Made by a program: the position numbers and the translations under genes. From positions 1-38,746 of the IMG/VR virus record IMGVR_UViG_3300025674_000125: a DNA stretch of 38,746 nt; one strand, given 5' to 3'. Shown piece by piece: positions 17,021 through 34,882 of this stretch. This DNA is from a virus. The notes beneath the pieces are model-generated. The model saw only the letters and a list, made by a program, of their open reading frames with translations, was not told the DNA's origin and made no database searches. Position 1 is the stretch's first letter. Each line of letters begins with the position of its first letter.

Positions 17021-18604
17021 CTACCAGCCAAGCCCGGAGAGGGCCTGCCAATATTCACCGTGATCCCGGACGGGTGCGGACTCCAGGCGATACCTGAGCG
17101 CCTGACACAGCGCGTCCGCCTCGTCGTCCACCTCCCCCCGCATATCCGGCCGATCCCCTCGGAGGCGGAGGAGGCGAGCGCGGAGGTCCAGGCCGTCCGC
17201 GTCGTGACCGTAACACCAGGAGACCGCGGCGCCGTGGCGCGCCTCGGGGAGCCGGACGCGGCCTAGCATCCACAGGCTCAGGGTCCCCTGGATCTGGTCA
17301 CGCTTAGACCCACGGCCGGACGTGGGGACCTCCTCCAGTTGGGGGAACATCGATCGGAGAGCAAGGACCGCCACGCGGCCGGACGACGCCCCCTCCACGA
17401 GGGCGCGCTGTGGCCGGTAGTCCTCCAGGACGGCGCGGAGACGGCGGATCACCCCTAGCTCATCCCACTGGCCGCGGTCCTGGTAGATCAGATCGTGACA
17501 CTCCCCGCGGATCGCGATCACCTGGATCGCCGTCCAGTCCCCGGCGCCCTCGGTCTGTGCGGAGTCCATCGAGACCCATAGCTCCGAGGCGGACGCGCGG
17601 ACGTGATCGGGGTGGTCCGGGTAGGTATGAGAGAGGGCCTCCGGGGGGAAAAGACCACCCACGGCGTCCACGTCCTCACCGTCCAGGAGGGGGGCCGCCC
17701 ACCGTCCGAGGATGACCCGCTGAGCGGCCTCTTTCGCCTCCGTCCACCCGGGGGTGAGGTAGCCCCGGGGACCGTATCGCCACGGCTCGGGACCGCGGAG
17801 GGGATAGCTGTGGCGCGCGATCTCCATGGTGAGCCCCGCCGCCTCCACCTCCTCCCGTTTACGGATCCAGAACCCCTTGGAGTCCGTGGCCCCGCGGCGC
17901 GTCCCAATATCCCAGATCTCCCCGCCGCGATCGGCCACGCGTCCGAGGGCGGAGGAGAGGAGGAGGTCCTCCACCTGGCGGACGTTGGCCGGGGACTGTG
18001 CGTCTCCGATCGTCTTGTAGAGATCGTCCGCGATCACCACGTCCAGGGGGAGACCCTCCAGGCCGCCGCGTCGTCCGGTGGATGCGAAACGAACCGGGGG
18101 CCGATCCGCCACCGGGTGAGGGACGGTCCACCGCGTGGCCGCGTCCGACTGATCACGCCGCGCGCCCTCGTGGCCGGGACCGTCCGGGACGCGGAGGTGG
18201 GGCCACGTGGCCACCGCCGCCGGGGACCGCATGAGGCGCCGCATATCCCGCCCCCACTCCCGGGCGAATTCCTCATTATACGCGAGGACCCCCACGGATA
18301 GCCCGGACGCGAGCGCCATAGCCGCGGCACGCTTGACGATCTCCGACTTGCCCGATTGCTGGGGGGCGTCGATCAAGAGGATCCGCACGGCGCCCCCGTG
18401 GCCGCCGTCCACGAGTCGCCCGATCGACCCCTGGAGGATCCGGCCTATGTGACCTTGCCACCCGTGGGGGACCATGGCCCCGCGGAGAGTGTGAGGTCCT
18501 TGTCGGCACCACTCCACGACGTCCGCGCGCGCGCGGGCCGCACGGATCCGCCGCGCCCTCTCAGCCTTGACGGCCTCTCTCAGAATGTGATCCGGGATCG
18601 ACAT
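17021..18604 (-). CDS. terL: Terminase large subunit
   Basis: 527 residues. ATPase domain: Walker A APQQSGKSE (residues 80-88), Walker B DVVIADD (D193 D194), a coupling region around GTRRG (235-239). Nuclease domain (RNase H fold): D347 in SMDSAQ, E404 in VEGAS, and an acidic cluster D493-D497 in VDDEADAL. This motor cuts and pumps DNA into the prohead. It is the only large gene on the minus strand and lies far from the probable small terminase (30082) and portal. A -10-like TAACGT sits exactly 6 nt before the ATG, with no clear Shine-Dalgarno. Confidence 0.9.
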   Translation of the reverse strand: MSIPDHILREAVKAERARRIRAARARADVVEWCRQGPHTLRGAMVPHGWQGHIGRILQGSIGRLVDGGHGGAVRILLIDAPQQSGKSEIVKRAAAMALASGLSVGVLAYNEEFAREWGRDMRRLMRSPAAVATWPHLRVPDGPGHEGARRDQSDAATRWTVPHPVADRPPVRFASTGRRGGLEGLPLDVVIADDLYKTIGDAQSPANVRQVEDLLLSSALGRVADRGGEIWDIGTRRGATDSKGFWIRKREEVEAAGLTMEIARHSYPLRGPEPWRYGPRGYLTPGWTEAKEAAQRVILGRWAAPLLDGEDVDAVGGLFPPEALSHTYPDHPDHVRASASELWVSMDSAQTEGAGDWTAIQVIAIRGECHDLIYQDRGQWDELGVIRRLRAVLEDYRPQRALVEGASSGRVAVLALRSMFPQLEEVPTSGRGSKRDQIQGTLSLWMLGRVRLPEARHGAAVSWCYGHDADGLDLRARLLRLRGDRPDMRGEVDDEADALCQALRYRLESAPVRDHGEYWQALSGLGW

Positions 18605-30596: not shown

Positions 30597-30854
30597 ATGC
30601 CACGCGGACGCAGCCCCCTCACGATAGCTCAGATCATGGCCGGGATTGACCCCGATCGCCCCGTGACCGCGGACGGCCTAGCCGCCGCCGCCGGTACCTC
30701 CAGGCGCACGGCTCAATATCGGATCCGCCGCCTCCGGGCGGAGGGTCTACTCTCCCCCGTGGACGGGGAGACCACCGGCCCGCGTGGTCAAGGCGTCCGC
30801 GCGGAGTATACTCTCACCGACACGGGACGCGCGGCCCTGGCCGCCGCCCCCTAG
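30597..30854 (+). CDS. Winged-helix transcription regulator
   Basis: 85 residues; ATG 30597 is preferred over ATG 30570, which lies inside the operator palindrome, because AAGGAG precedes it. Helix-turn-helix: VTADGLAAAAGTSRRTAQYRIRRLRAEGLLSPVDG, with the wing ETTGPRGQGVRAEYTLTDTGRAAL. Resembles MarR/PadR-type or replication-initiator wHTH domains. Probably autoregulates through the palindrome at 30562. May control the packaging/head operon downstream. Confidence 0.65.
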   Translation: MPRGRSPLTIAQIMAGIDPDRPVTADGLAAAAGTSRRTAQYRIRRLRAEGLLSPVDGETTGPRGQGVRAEYTLTDTGRAALAAAP

Positions 30855-30867
30855 ACCCGGCGGCCCC

Positions 30868-32949
30868 ATGCCCACGATCCGCGATCGCGTCCTCTCATGG
30901 TTAGACCTCACCCCACCCCCGGAGACCCCGCCGGACGAGTCCCGCGCGGACTCCGTGATCCAGTCCTCCGCCATGGGGTTCGGGATGGCCGGGAAGGACC
31001 GCGTGGACGAGGTGACGCCTAAAAGCGGGCTCAGGTGGTGGTCACAGGCTCAGCTTGTCCATAGCTACATGAGAGGAGGGATCGCCCGACGACTGGCGAT
31101 CGCGCCACCCATGGACGCGATCCGCCACGGGTACACCGTGACCACGGACACGGAGGAGGAGGAGACGGTCCCGCGCGCCCTCCACGTCCGCCGCGCCGCC
31201 CTCCAGGCCCGACAGTACGCCCGGGCGTTCCGGGGCGCCCTCGTCTACGTGAGGGTAGACGGCGATCAGTCCGCCCCCCTCGGAGACGGCCCCCACGAGG
31301 TCCGAGCCCTCCACGTGATCATGCCCTCCGAGGCCACCCCCTCCGCCCTCTCACGACAGGCGGACGTGGATCGGCCGGACTGGACGGCCCCCGAATTCTG
31401 GGACCTCCACCCGACGCGGCCGGGTCTCACCTTCAGCGGGGAGCGCCGGGTCCACGCGTCCCGCGTGATCGTCGTCCCGGGCTTGGACGTCCCGCTGGAC
31501 GTGACGCCGCCTGATGACGGATTCCAGGCCGCGGTCCTGGACGTGTACTGGGAGAGTCTCCGAAATCTTGAGGTGGTGACATCCTCCACCACGTCCCTCA
31601 TGTCCGAGCGATCGGTGGCCGTCTATGAGCAGGACGGGAACGGCGCCGCCTCCGGGCGTGACGGCGTGTCCTGGCTGGACCGCCTCCGCGCCCTCCGCCG
31701 GGCTACCTCGGTCCTCGGGGCGATCACCCTCCCGCCGGGGTGGAAGGTCTCCCGGACGGACGCGACGATCACCGGGTGGCGAGACGCCAAGGTCTCCGCG
31801 TATGAGGACGTGGCCAGCGTGGAGGGGATCCCCCCCGCGGTGGCGATCGGTACGCCGCCGGCCGGGATGACCTCGGACGATCAAGCCTCACGCCGGACGT
31901 ACCACCGCCTCCTGGACGGACAGGAGCGGCCGATCCTGGAGGACGTGATCCTCCGGGTCCACGAGATCGTCCACGGCCTAGACGAGTCCCGCCGCATGAT
32001 CTGGCCCGCCCTGGAGGAGCCCACCGCCGTGGAGCGCGCTCAGATCTCCGCCACCCTGGCCCAACGGGACGCGGCCCTCTACGCCGCCCAGATCGTGGAG
32101 CGTGACGAAATCCGGGGCCGCCACCTCGGGGACCGGGAGATCGAATACCTCCAGATCGATCCGACCCTGGACGACGCCGCGGACGCGATCGAGGTGGACC
32201 CGGGAGAGGACACGGCCGCCACCCTGGAGGAGATCCTCCGCGCGGACGCGGAGACGTACCGCCCCCCGGAGTCCGCCCGCAACAACGCCCGCCGCGTCCT
32301 CAAGTGGCGGGAGGAGCACGGGGACGAGGTGGCCGGGATGACCCGCGTAGGATGGACCCGCGCGCGTCAGCTAGCCGAGGGCCGCCCCCTCTCCCGGGAG
32401 ACGGTGGGAAGAATGGCGGCATTTGAGCGCCACCGCAAGAATTCCGAGGTGGCGCCGGAATACAAAGACACCCCCTGGAGGGACGCCGGCCGCGTGGCGT
32501 GGCTTGGATGGGGCGGGGACTCCGGGGTGGCGTGGGCCGCCCGGATCGTGGCCCGCGGGGACGCGGAGGACAAGAGCACGCCGGCCAAGCCCTCCGAGCG
32601 GATCAAGGGCTCACGGACCAACCCGCGCGGGACGGCCTCCGGGTCTCGTGGCGGGATCGAGGTCTCCGAGGAGACTGAGGCCGCCCTCCGGTCCAAGGTG
32701 GACGAACACAACGACGGCGCCACCGAGGGCCGCCGGGTGGATCTGGGTATGCTTAAAGCCGTCTACCGCCGCGGGGCCGGGGCGTTCTCCACCTCTCACC
32801 GCCCCGGGATGACCCGTAACCAGTGGAGCATGGGGCGCGTTAACGCTTTCTTGCACCTCGTGAGGACGGGGAAGCCTCAAGACGCGGACTACACCGGGGA
32901 CAACGACCTCTTACCCAAGGACCACCCCCGATCCACCCGGGAGGGGTAG
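30868..32949 (+). CDS. Portal protein with two C-terminal extra domains (DUF1073-like)
   Basis: 693 residues. Residues ~20-430 read as a DUF1073-type portal: GIARRLAIAPPMDAIRHGYTVT, LQARQYARAFRGALVYVRVDGD, a long stem helix around ISVEGIPPAVAIGTPPAGMTS, DQASRRTYHRLLDGQER. Two phage-associated modules follow: ~463-565 (ARRVLKWREEHG... ARQLAEGRPLSRETVGRM, LGWGGDSGVAWA), seen in prohead and protease proteins, and ~594-690 (TEAALRSKVDEHND, LKAVYRRGAGAFSTSHRPGMTR, VNAFLHLV), another common phage module. A 12-subunit ring would carry twelve copies. No clear ribosome site precedes ATG 30868. Confidence 0.78.
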   Translation: MPTIRDRVLSWLDLTPPPETPPDESRADSVIQSSAMGFGMAGKDRVDEVTPKSGLRWWSQAQLVHSYMRGGIARRLAIAPPMDAIRHGYTVTTDTEEEETVPRALHVRRAALQARQYARAFRGALVYVRVDGDQSAPLGDGPHEVRALHVIMPSEATPSALSRQADVDRPDWTAPEFWDLHPTRPGLTFSGERRVHASRVIVVPGLDVPLDVTPPDDGFQAAVLDVYWESLRNLEVVTSSTTSLMSERSVAVYEQDGNGAASGRDGVSWLDRLRALRRATSVLGAITLPPGWKVSRTDATITGWRDAKVSAYEDVASVEGIPPAVAIGTPPAGMTSDDQASRRTYHRLLDGQERPILEDVILRVHEIVHGLDESRRMIWPALEEPTAVERAQISATLAQRDAALYAAQIVERDEIRGRHLGDREIEYLQIDPTLDDAADAIEVDPGEDTAATLEEILRADAETYRPPESARNNARRVLKWREEHGDEVAGMTRVGWTRARQLAEGRPLSRETVGRMAAFERHRKNSEVAPEYKDTPWRDAGRVAWLGWGGDSGVAWAARIVARGDAEDKSTPAKPSERIKGSRTNPRGTASGSRGGIEVSEETEAALRSKVDEHNDGATEGRRVDLGMLKAVYRRGAGAFSTSHRPGMTRNQWSMGRVNAFLHLVRTGKPQDADYTGDNDLLPKDHPRSTREG

Positions 32950-32951
32950 CT

Positions 32952-34712
32952 GTGCCCGTCCAGCGTGTGAGCCCGGACGCGGAGGGCCGCCCCGGCTACC
33001 GGTGGGGAGAGTCCGGCGCCGTGTACCGCTACACCCCGGGAGACCCTCGGGGACGACGCCGCGCCCACGCCCTGGCCGCCCGTCAAGGCCGGGCCGTCCT
33101 CGCACGGAGGGCGGACGCACGAGACCCCCGGAGGCCCTCGGATCGCGCGTACCGCCGCGCCGCCGTGGCATACGTGGACGCCCTGGAGAGGTGGATCCTC
33201 TCCGTGATCCGCGGGGCTATGGCCGCCGCCCGGGCGGACGAGGACGACGAGGACCCGGACGACATCACGGCGGAGACAGACCTGGAGGAGATCCGCCGTC
33301 AAGCGGACGCCGCCTACGCCGCGCGCCTGGAGGTCCAGCGCCGCGCCCTCCTCTCCCCCGGAGACGGTGGACCCCCCGCGCCACCCTCGGAGGAGGAGAT
33401 GGCCCGGATCCTCACGCCGGCCTCCCGGGTCTCCACGTCCTCCGCGCGCCGTGAGCTACTCCGAGCCGGCGCGGACCCTGAGCGCCTGGACGTCCGCCTG
33501 GGTCTAGCCTCAGACGCGGGGATCCCGGAGATCGACATCATGCCCACGGAGTACGAGGCGCGGCGGATCGTGTCCTTTGCCTCGGAGGGGGTCAGCCTGA
33601 TCTCCACCGTGGGCGCGGACCTCCTGGACTCCGTGGACGTGGTACTGGCTCACGCCGTGAGGGACGGCCTCCGATACACTCAGATCCGAGACCTCGTGGA
33701 GGCCCGGACGGGGATCTCCACCCGCCACGCGGAACTGATCGCCCGAGACCAGATCGGCAAATTGAACGGGAAGATCGTACAAGACACCCAGGCCGCCGCC
33801 GGGGTGGAGTCCTACACGTGGCGGACGGCCAACGATCAACGCGTCCGAGGCAACCCCGCCGGCCCCTATGCCAAGAGCAGACAGGACCACTGGGGACTCC
33901 GTGGCACGGTCCACCGGTGGGACAAGCCGCCCCGCCGCGCCGGCCCGTACGGGGAGCCGGCCCACCCGGGAGAGTCGATCCAGTGTCGATGCTACGCGGA
34001 GGCGATCCTGCCGGATGACCTCAAGCGCCCCTCACGAGGCGCGCGGGACGTCATGCGACAGATGGGACCACGAGGGCGCGCCCAAGACCCGGACGCCCCC
34101 CTCGTGGACGTCACGGGCGCCACCTGGAGGGACGAGGCCGGGGCGCCGCTGGACCGCGCCGCGCCACGCCGTCCAGGCGCCGCGATCCCCCGATCCGTGG
34201 GCGGCCACGTCGTGGAGGACACCACCCGGCCCACCATGACCACCACGCGGATCGTGGACGACGGGAGGCGCGCCGTGGCCATGATCTCCGCCTGGGTCCG
34301 AGGCTCACGATCCAAGGCGTCCAACGCGCTCAAGATCGCCGCCATGGATGAACTAGGCGGAGGCGGGATCCCGTATTCCCGGCGGTCCTGGACGTACTCC
34401 GCCCGGGACATCGACAGGACGCGCGCGGCCACGCGGACGCTATACGAGGAGACCCAGGCCGCCCTCCGCGCCACGGGGCGGGATACCGTGACCCTGTACC
34501 GCGGGATCCGATCGGAGTACGCCGTGGAGGGGGCGATCGAGGCGTGGACCTCGGACGTGGCCACGGCGCGCAAATTCGCCGGCCCGGACGGGTATATCCT
34601 CACGGAGGAGATCCCGATCGATCGCGTCCTCACCTACTCCGGCGGCCCCCGGTGGAAGAATGGACCGTGGGGGGAACAATACGAATTCTTGATCCTCGGG
34701 AGGAGACCATGA
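32952..34712 (+). CDS. SPP1 gp7-type minor head protein fused to an ADP-ribosyltransferase
   Basis: 586 residues, GTG start. N-terminus YRWGESGAVYRYTPGD...RRAHALAARQGRA is a small basic phage module. Residues ~256-352 are the gp7/Mu gpF fold: TRHAELIARDQIGKLNG, ESYTWRTANDQRVR, HWGLRGTVHRW, GESIQCRCYAEAIL. Residues ~425-586 form an ART: arginine motif TLYRGIRS (about 513-520), EAWTSDVATARKFAG (STS-like motif, with TSD) and a C-terminal GEQYEFLIL, giving QYE at the ExE/QxE position. Such a protein would be built into the head and delivered with the DNA to modify host proteins early. Confidence 0.8.
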   Translation: MPVQRVSPDAEGRPGYRWGESGAVYRYTPGDPRGRRRAHALAARQGRAVLARRADARDPRRPSDRAYRRAAVAYVDALERWILSVIRGAMAAARADEDDEDPDDITAETDLEEIRRQADAAYAARLEVQRRALLSPGDGGPPAPPSEEEMARILTPASRVSTSSARRELLRAGADPERLDVRLGLASDAGIPEIDIMPTEYEARRIVSFASEGVSLISTVGADLLDSVDVVLAHAVRDGLRYTQIRDLVEARTGISTRHAELIARDQIGKLNGKIVQDTQAAAGVESYTWRTANDQRVRGNPAGPYAKSRQDHWGLRGTVHRWDKPPRRAGPYGEPAHPGESIQCRCYAEAILPDDLKRPSRGARDVMRQMGPRGRAQDPDAPLVDVTGATWRDEAGAPLDRAAPRRPGAAIPRSVGGHVVEDTTRPTMTTTRIVDDGRRAVAMISAWVRGSRSKASNALKIAAMDELGGGGIPYSRRSWTYSARDIDRTRAATRTLYEETQAALRATGRDTVTLYRGIRSEYAVEGAIEAWTSDVATARKFAGPDGYILTEEIPIDRVLTYSGGPRWKNGPWGEQYEFLILGRRP

Positions 34713-34882
34713 GAGAGAGGACAGTCCAAGCCACGGACGCGGACGGACGGCCGATCACGGTCACACTTTACACCCCGGAGACCCCGGAGGACGTGGAGAT
34801 CCTACGCCGCCGCGCCACGGAGGAGGGCCTGGACGATCGGACGTCGATGGCCGACGGGGCCACACGACGCGGCACAAGATGA
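34709..34882 (+). CDS. Small unknown protein
   Basis: 57 residues, ATGA overlap with the ART gene; GGAGGAGACC precedes the ATG. Beta N-terminus (RTVQATDADGRPITVTLYTPETP) followed by a helix (EDVEILRRRATEEGLDD) and a basic tail. Not recognised. The close coupling to the ART fusion suggests a related role, such as a cofactor or antidote, but nothing in the sequence proves it. Confidence 0.55.
   Translation: MRERTVQATDADGRPITVTLYTPETPEDVEILRRRATEEGLDDRTSMADGATRRGTR

What the first reader, a model, noticed from the sequence alone, without database searches (positions are those of the whole stretch)
32952..34712. ADP-ribosyltransferase fused to the minor head protein
A gp7-type head protein carries a C-terminal ART-like domain (TLYRGI, WTSD, QYE at the ExE/QxE position). 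Head-bound ARTs such as T4 Alt enter the cell with the DNA and reprogram it. A Gln two residues before the catalytic Glu is typical of C3-like (Asn-modifying) rather than Arg-specific enzymes, so the target may be unusual. The small gene at 34709 is translationally coupled and could be a partner.
Basis: partly seen in the sequence, partly recalled or inferred. Interest (0 to 1): 0.75.

Follow-up and report, generated by a model that had tools for sequence, protein, structure and literature searches.

The report
Virus head protein carrying an ADP-ribosyltransferase
A bacteriophage head protein ends in a predicted ADP-ribose-transferring enzyme that probably enters the bacterium with the virus DNA, and it moves between unrelated viruses together with a tiny neighbouring gene that probably keeps it in check; this is a new variant of a known kind of phage weapon.

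Summary
The finding is real. The 586-aa protein at 32952-34712 has a MuF/SPP1-gp7 minor-head domain (residues 228-348, PF04233). Residues ~421-586 form a separate conserved domain. Curated family libraries miss it, but profile, fold and motif evidence place it in the R-S-E class of mono-ADP-ribosyltransferases (ARTs). Arg517, W532-T533-x-D535, Gln576 and Glu578 are invariant in homologues down to 36% identity, and GPWGEQYE fits the published ARTT-loop pattern xxφxxQxE.

The main addition: the ART domain and the tiny overlapping gene downstream (34709-34882) form a module. Both occur together, with a 4-base overlap, in every phage record found with the domain (seven records, window included), including one lineage whose MuF domain and portal are unrelated to the window's in pairwise comparison. 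The partner is absent from eight short-MuF relatives examined.

Head-borne MuF-ARTs with adjacent immunity genes are already known (EFV, Bxa, Microbacterium phage Percival). New here are the QxE motif (EFV has ExE; Bxa modifies Arg) and the partner family. 'C3-like/Asn' is over-specific: QxE is also typical of guanine-modifying Scabin/pierisin. Verdict: new variant of a known kind. Catalysis, injection, target and partner role are inferred, not shown.

The parts
30784..32949 (+). Portal protein gene directly upstream (Phage_portal_3), with a C-terminal DUF5824 segment at 32737-32907
   Evidence: PF06381 E=5.9e-32, PF19141 E=2.6e-7; phrog_146; PF19141 place
32952..34712 (+). MuF-ART fusion gene, 586 aa, GTG start
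33633..33995 (+). MuF / SPP1-gp7 minor head domain (residues 228-348)
   Evidence: PF04233; TIGR01641 below its cut-off; phrog_324
33996..34226 (+). Variable linker between head domain and ART domain
   Evidence: poorly alignable between window and L014; 77% identical to G002 against 89% for MuF plus linker as a whole
34212..34709 (+). C-terminal ART-type domain (residues ~421-586): N-terminal helical part, then split-beta core
34500..34502 (+). Arg517, predicted NAD-binding Arg of the R-S-E triad (LYRG)
   Evidence: invariant in alignment A3
34545..34556 (+). W532-T533-S534-D535, position of the STS motif
   Evidence: W, T and D invariant in A3; aligned to SFTTS of T4 ModB by hhalign
34662..34685 (+). 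ARTT loop GPWGEQYE: aromatic W573, Gln576, catalytic Glu578
   Evidence: Q and E invariant; aromatic W/F/F/F, His in G002; matches the loop pattern X-X-φ-X-X-E/Q-X-E of PMC7827354
34709..34882 (+). Small acidic partner gene, 57 aa, ATGA overlap with the MuF-ART stop; candidate immunity/inhibitor protein
   Evidence: homologues in every MuF-ART locus found; absent from 8 short-MuF loci

Best explanation
The gene encodes a virion-borne MuF-ADP-ribosyltransferase of the MuF polymorphic-effector kind. The MuF domain places the protein in the head near the portal (inferred from SPP1 gp7). The C-terminal R-S-E class mono-ART domain enters the host with the DNA (inferred) and, using NAD+, ADP-ribosylates a host molecule early in infection (inferred). 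The QxE motif makes a non-arginine target more likely: an Asn/Gln side chain or a guanine base. The 57-aa acidic protein, translated from an overlapping start codon and inherited with the ART domain, most likely binds the basic ART domain and blocks it in the cell that makes the particles (inferred). Shown here: the fusion, ART-type motifs and profile similarity, selection on the sequence, and co-inheritance of domain and partner on unrelated head backbones.
For: MuF domain and portal neighbour. ART identity from several lines: (a) profile-profile matches to phage SP-15 gp258 (E 5.4e-7) and to the mycobacteriophage R/WT/ExE family phrog_4776 (E 1.5e-6; hmmscan E 3e-4 to 0.016, which did not depend on motif-based selection); (b) alignment of LYRGI and the STS region with T4 ModB, a known ADP-ribosylase (P 0.0023); (c) AlphaFold2 model pTM 0.65, whose first 25 VIA-align rows are all ART-superfamily chains (ExoS/ExoT, C2-I, Vis, Certhrax, C3bot1, SpvB, KptA, TreTu; Z 2.9-5.3), and BFVD matches at E 6e-7 to 1e-4 including a head morphogenesis protein and SP-15 gp258; (d) R, WTxD and QxE invariant, and an aromatic ARTT residue in 4 of 5. 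Module: window against L022 lineage gives 40% identity over the ART domain (Z 49), 36% in the multiple alignment, yet no pairwise similarity for the MuF part (Z -0.7) or the portal (Z 0.2; phrog_146 against phrog_104). The partner is homologous across lineages (shuffle Z 4.6-10.7 between lineages), found in 7 of 7 records and in none of 8 short-MuF relatives. ART domain pI 9.5, partner pI 4.8-5.3. Precedents: Bxa and its immunity proteins (PMC11699363), EFV (PMC3000352), MuF toxins followed by small ORFs in 89.4% of cases (PMC5576092).
Against: No Pfam or NCBIfam match and no PDB sequence match for the domain. The AlphaFold2 model is only moderately confident (pLDDT 65.5; the ARTT loop is under 50). 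Foldseek against PDB alone found nothing significant (best E 1.5), and VIA-align Z stays at or below 5.3, a level its notes call inconclusive taken alone. Nothing shows enzyme activity, virion presence or injection. The window phage and its close kin have no detectable integrase, whereas published MuF toxins are reported almost only from temperate phages, so 'immunity' in the lysogen sense may not apply here.
Confidence: 0.72

Rival explanations
1. Alt-like host-takeover enzyme: the ART is a benign early modifier of host machinery (such as RNA polymerase or ribosome), and the small protein is an assembly chaperone or packaging factor that keeps the domain soluble and inactive until ejection, not an immunity protein.
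For: The phage appears to lack an integrase, so protecting a lysogen is not needed. T4 Alt precedent and about 44% of phage ARTs in head-packaging contexts (PMC9503650). Weak link to T4 ModB.
Against: The partner diverges faster than the ART domain and the head part (50%, 73% and 89% identity window/G002), and both move as a cassette, which is more typical of effector/immunity pairs. The L022-type record carries two tyrosine recombinases, so at least one carrier may be temperate.
Confidence: 0.35
2. The small gene is an ordinary head-assembly gene that merely sits downstream of MuF and is unrelated to the ART activity.
For: It lies in the head operon and gives no family match.
Against: Absent from eight short-MuF phages with comparable portal-MuF-protease order; present in all seven ART carriers, with the same start-stop overlap, even where MuF and portal are unrelated.
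Confidence: 0.12
3. The C-terminal domain has an ART-like fold but is catalytically dead and serves as a structural or binding domain.
For: No activity data; ARTT loop poorly modelled.
Against: R, WTxD, Q and E are all retained at 36-43% overall identity and the domain is under purifying selection.
Confidence: 0.08
4. The domain is not an ART; the short motifs are coincidental.
For: No curated family match; two homologue lineages were found by motif-bearing patterns.
Against: Independent profile matches, the fold ranking and BFVD matches agree on ART.
Confidence: 0.04

Closest known systems
Bxa of Bacteroides stercoris prophage (PMC11699363)
   Different: Bxa modifies arginine and has two immunity proteins, one an ADP-ribosylhydrolase; here QxE, one 57-aa partner, and no hydrolase recognised among the genes scanned
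EFV toxin of Enterococcus faecalis V583 prophage (PMC3000352, PMC5576092)
   Same: MuF1-type head protein with a C-terminal ART; mutation of its ExE glutamates relieved toxicity in yeast
   Different: EFV has ExE (E461, E463) and VIP2/C2-like similarity; here QxE and no Pfam match
MuF-VIP2 fusions of Microbacterium phages Percival and Goodman/Johann (PMC7302621)
   Same: MuF-ART fusion as a predicted virion component, in phages of high-GC bacteria; the Goodman/Johann cluster shows no features of temperate phages
   Different: Annotated as VIP2-like; sequences not fetched here, so subfamily kinship and motif are untested
phrog_4776 proteins of mycobacteriophages (LeBron gp117 and others)
   Same: Profile match, shared VYRG and SWT motifs
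   Different: Stand-alone, not MuF-fused, ExE in place of QxE, annotated hypothetical
Bacillus phage SP-15 gp258
   Same: Best named-phage profile match (E 5.4e-7) and BFVD fold match; shares the helical N-terminal part and the LYLFRG motif
   Different: Not MuF-fused as far as seen, DEAE in place of EQYE, and no partner homologue in the 8-kb region fetched
T4 Alt / ModA / ModB
   Same: Phage ARTs of the R-S-E class; Alt is head-packaged and injected
   Different: Only ModB aligns, and weakly; ModA does not; Alt was not compared; no MuF domain
C3 exoenzymes and Scabin/ScARP/pierisin
   Same: Q-x-E in the ARTT loop
   Different: Secreted proteins with Rho Asn or guanine as targets; no sequence-level similarity found

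Membership tests
MuF polymorphic toxins (PMC5576092) | MuF-superfamily domain | tested here: met
   PF04233 above cut-off
MuF polymorphic toxins (PMC5576092) | Gene immediately downstream of the portal | tested here: met
   Portal ends 32949, MuF gene starts 32952
MuF polymorphic toxins (PMC5576092) | C-terminal extension with a toxin/effector domain | tested here: met
   ART-type domain by profile, fold and motifs; toxicity not tested
MuF polymorphic toxins (PMC5576092) | Small ORF under 150 aa downstream (candidate immunity gene) | tested here: met
   57-aa gene, conserved
MuF polymorphic toxins (PMC5576092) | Carried by a temperate phage or prophage | tested here: inconclusive
   No PF00589 or PF00239 match in G000-G003; two PF00589 matches in G004. 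Records may be incomplete.
MuF polymorphic toxins (PMC5576092) | C-terminal domain exchanged between different carriers (polymorphism) | tested here: met
   Same ART and partner on unrelated MuF and portal
R-S-E class mono-ADP-ribosyltransferases | Arg on strand 1 (xRG) | tested here: met
   R517 in LYRG, on the modelled strand 92-99
R-S-E class mono-ADP-ribosyltransferases | S-T-S type motif on strand 2 | tested here: met
   WT[ST]D on the modelled strand 109-113, with Thr in place of the usual Ser; aligned to SFTTS of ModB
R-S-E class mono-ADP-ribosyltransferases | [Q/E]-x-E in an ARTT loop | tested here: met
   Q576-Y-E578, aromatic at the φ position (pattern)
R-S-E class mono-ADP-ribosyltransferases | Split-beta NAD-binding fold | tested here: inconclusive
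   Moderate model; VIA-align Z up to 5.3 with the first 25 rows all ART superfamily; Foldseek PDB not significant
R-S-E class mono-ADP-ribosyltransferases | NAD+-dependent ADP-ribose transfer | not testable with these tools
   Needs purified protein
C3-like Asn-specific exoenzymes | Q-x-E motif | tested here: met
   but shared with the pierisin/Scabin group
C3-like Asn-specific exoenzymes | Modification of Asn of a Rho-type GTPase | not testable with these tools
   No target data
C3-like Asn-specific exoenzymes | Sequence similarity to C3 exoenzymes | tested here: inconclusive
   No PDB sequence match; C3bot1 only among many ART fold matches
Pierisin/Scabin guanine-modifying ARTs | Signature Rβ1-RLa-NLc-STTβ2-WPN-WARTT-(QxE) | tested here: inconclusive
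   QxE and, in the window only, a Trp at the ARTT aromatic position are present (Phe or His in relatives); the other elements could not be placed

The most novel reading that the evidence does not exclude
This is a distinct subfamily of head-injected ARTs that does not modify arginine (Asn/Gln or a nucleic-acid guanine instead), spread as an effector-plus-inhibitor cassette across unrelated phage head types, including phages without an integrase, where the small partner protects particle production rather than a lysogen.
Probability: 0.35. Interest if true: 0.65.

Novelty: new variant of a known kind. Interest (0 to 1): 0.45.

Why it matters
What MuF toxins do in the infected cell, and whether they are really delivered with DNA, is still an open question in the papers read (PMC5576092, PMC11699363). 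A subfamily that standard family libraries miss, with an unusual active-site residue and a minimal 57-aa partner, gives a compact testable pair. Finding the same pair on unrelated head backbones is sequence evidence that the ART and partner are one unit. If the target is not arginine, it would widen what phage head enzymes are known to modify.

Tried and rejected
Direct Pfam, NCBIfam and PDB sequence scans of the domain found nothing; the best PDB profile hit (E 1) was 2kxi, labelled only 'uncharacterized protein', not used as evidence. The first AlphaFold2 run with three near-identical sequences was uninformative (pLDDT 45); Foldseek on the second model against PDB gave no significant match. 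Genome-contig scans found no relative in sequenced bacteria by short exact patterns, a low-sensitivity test. tblastn of the domain or partner against named phages gave only chance-level hits, apart from a weak SP-15 hit later supported by profiles. A relaxed motif scan added no new family member. T4 ModA did not align. Relatives of a virus record cannot be drawn. Three guessed accessions for mycobacteriophages were not in the collection, so Percival and VIP2-type phage ARTs were compared from the paper only. 'C3-like' was rejected as a filing because QxE does not distinguish it from pierisin/Scabin.

Full report
What is there. The reading frame at 32952-34712 is a 586-residue protein that follows the portal gene after two bases. 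Residues 228-348 are a MuF/SPP1-gp7 minor-head domain (PF04233 E 2e-8; phrog_324 E 1.8e-36; TIGR01641 34.7 bits, below its 39.65 cut-off). In eight phages whose MuF matches the window's, the MuF gene is short (about 250-305 aa), ending soon after this domain, and no homologue of the partner follows. The window protein instead continues through a variable linker into a further domain of about 165 residues.

Homologues. The C-terminal domain has close relatives in two IMG/VR records, G001 (90% identity over the domain) and G002 (73%; its gene is split over the ends of a contig with a 127-base terminal repeat). Two pattern scans added L014 (42%) and the L022/L031/L034 group (36%). Because those scans used parts of the motif, invariance at those positions is partly by selection. 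The conserved N-terminal half (W..GS......K......LG..G...Y..TQ..LR..G) and the partner gene were not part of any pattern.

Is it an ART? No curated family matches. Positive evidence is independent and concordant. PHROG scanning of the unselected sequences gave phrog_4776 (E 3e-4 to 0.014), a mycobacteriophage family that also holds L012 and carries VYRG, SWT and ExE; profile-profile comparison with such sequences gave E 1.5e-6. SP-15 gp258 matched at E 5.4e-7, and T4 ModB, a known ADP-ribosylase, aligned LYRGI with LYRGI and WTSDVATARKFA with FTTSLHTACSFS (P 0.0023 for one comparison). The second AlphaFold2 model (pLDDT 65.5, pTM 0.65) has the order helices, strand with Arg, strand with the STS-type motif, helix, strands. 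Among 678 PDB chains re-aligned by VIA-align the first 25 rows are all ART-superfamily chains, led by ExoS at Z 5.3. The Z values are low and the tool warns about this range; the weight lies in the unanimity of the family. Foldseek against PDB was not significant; against predicted viral proteins it gave five matches under E 0.001, among them a 'head morphogenesis' protein and SP-15 gp258.

Active site. Arg517, W532-T533-x-D535, Gln576 and Glu578 are invariant. GPWGEQYE fits the ARTT-loop rule X-X-φ-X-X-E/Q-X-E (PMC7827354), with φ as Trp, Phe, Phe, Phe or His. Papers relate E at the sixth position to Arg targets and Q to Asn, Gln or Cys (PMC3000352; PMC7827354), but Scabin and ScARP use QxE to modify guanine (PMC7828395). 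The motif therefore makes arginine less likely and leaves protein amide or guanine open.

The module. The 57-aa gene at 34709-34882 starts inside the stop of the MuF-ART gene (ATGA). Its homologues follow the ART in every lineage: G001, G002 and L014 with ATGA, and L022 with GTGA. Pairwise shuffle tests between lineages give Z 4.6-10.7, and a profile finds it in 7 of 7 ART-carrying records. Since that profile was built from these sequences, the meaningful points are the pairwise tests and the absence from eight short-MuF loci, where only a chance-level hit (E 6.6) appeared. In the L022 group the ART domain is 40% identical to the window's in local alignment (Z 49), while the MuF parts do not align above chance (Z -0.7) and the portals belong to different PHROGs (phrog_104 against phrog_146; Z 0.2). 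The simplest reading is that ART plus partner moved as one unit between head types. Identity falls from head part (89%) to ART (73%) to partner (50%) between window and G002, as expected of a faster-evolving effector pair. The ART is basic (pI 9.5) and the partners acidic (pI 4.8-5.3).

How it probably works. Shown: fusion, motifs, selection, co-inheritance. Inferred from SPP1 gp7 and MuF toxin literature: location near the portal and entry with DNA. Inferred from motif and fold: NAD+-dependent mono-ADP-ribosylation of a probably non-arginine target. Inferred from genetics and from Bxa (PMC11699363): the partner blocks the enzyme in the producing cell. The window phage and its kin show no integrase, so protection during particle production is as plausible as lysogen immunity; G004 has two tyrosine recombinases.

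Relation to the known. MuF-ART fusions and small downstream immunity genes are established (PMC5576092; PMC9503650; PMC7302621; Bxa; EFV). A text search found no paper holding the three words MuF, ADP-ribosyltransferase and QxE together, though the library is incomplete. I file this as a MuF polymorphic-effector system with a new ART subfamily and partner: a new variant of a known kind, of moderate interest.

Noticed in passing
window 32737-32907 (portal C-terminus); L001; L002: The portal protein ends in a DUF5824 segment in the window and G001, but the 90%-identical portal of G002 lacks it: a second optional C-terminal extension on a portal-region head protein, function unknown.
   Followed up: partly
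window 17024-18604 (-): The large terminase subunit is encoded on the opposite strand and about 12 kb away from the portal-MuF genes (Terminase_6C, phrog_38), an unusual arrangement.
   Followed up: no
L012:8057-8692 (-), mycobacteriophages LeBron gp117, JoeDirt gp121, Moostard gp114, Silverleaf gp114: phrog_4776, annotated 'hypothetical protein' in over 100 actinobacteriophages, carries VYRG, SWT and ExE and matches this ART domain: probably an unannotated family of stand-alone phage ARTs.
   Followed up: partly
L066:2640-4049 (Bacillus phage SP-15 gp258): Annotated hypothetical; C-terminal part looks like an ART of the same broad family with DEAEVVLLG at the ExE position.
   Followed up: partly
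L007/L002 (G002 ends): The G002 contig has a 127-base direct terminal repeat that falls inside the ART domain gene, so the gene is split over the contig ends; the record is probably a complete circularly permuted or circularised genome.
   Followed up: partly
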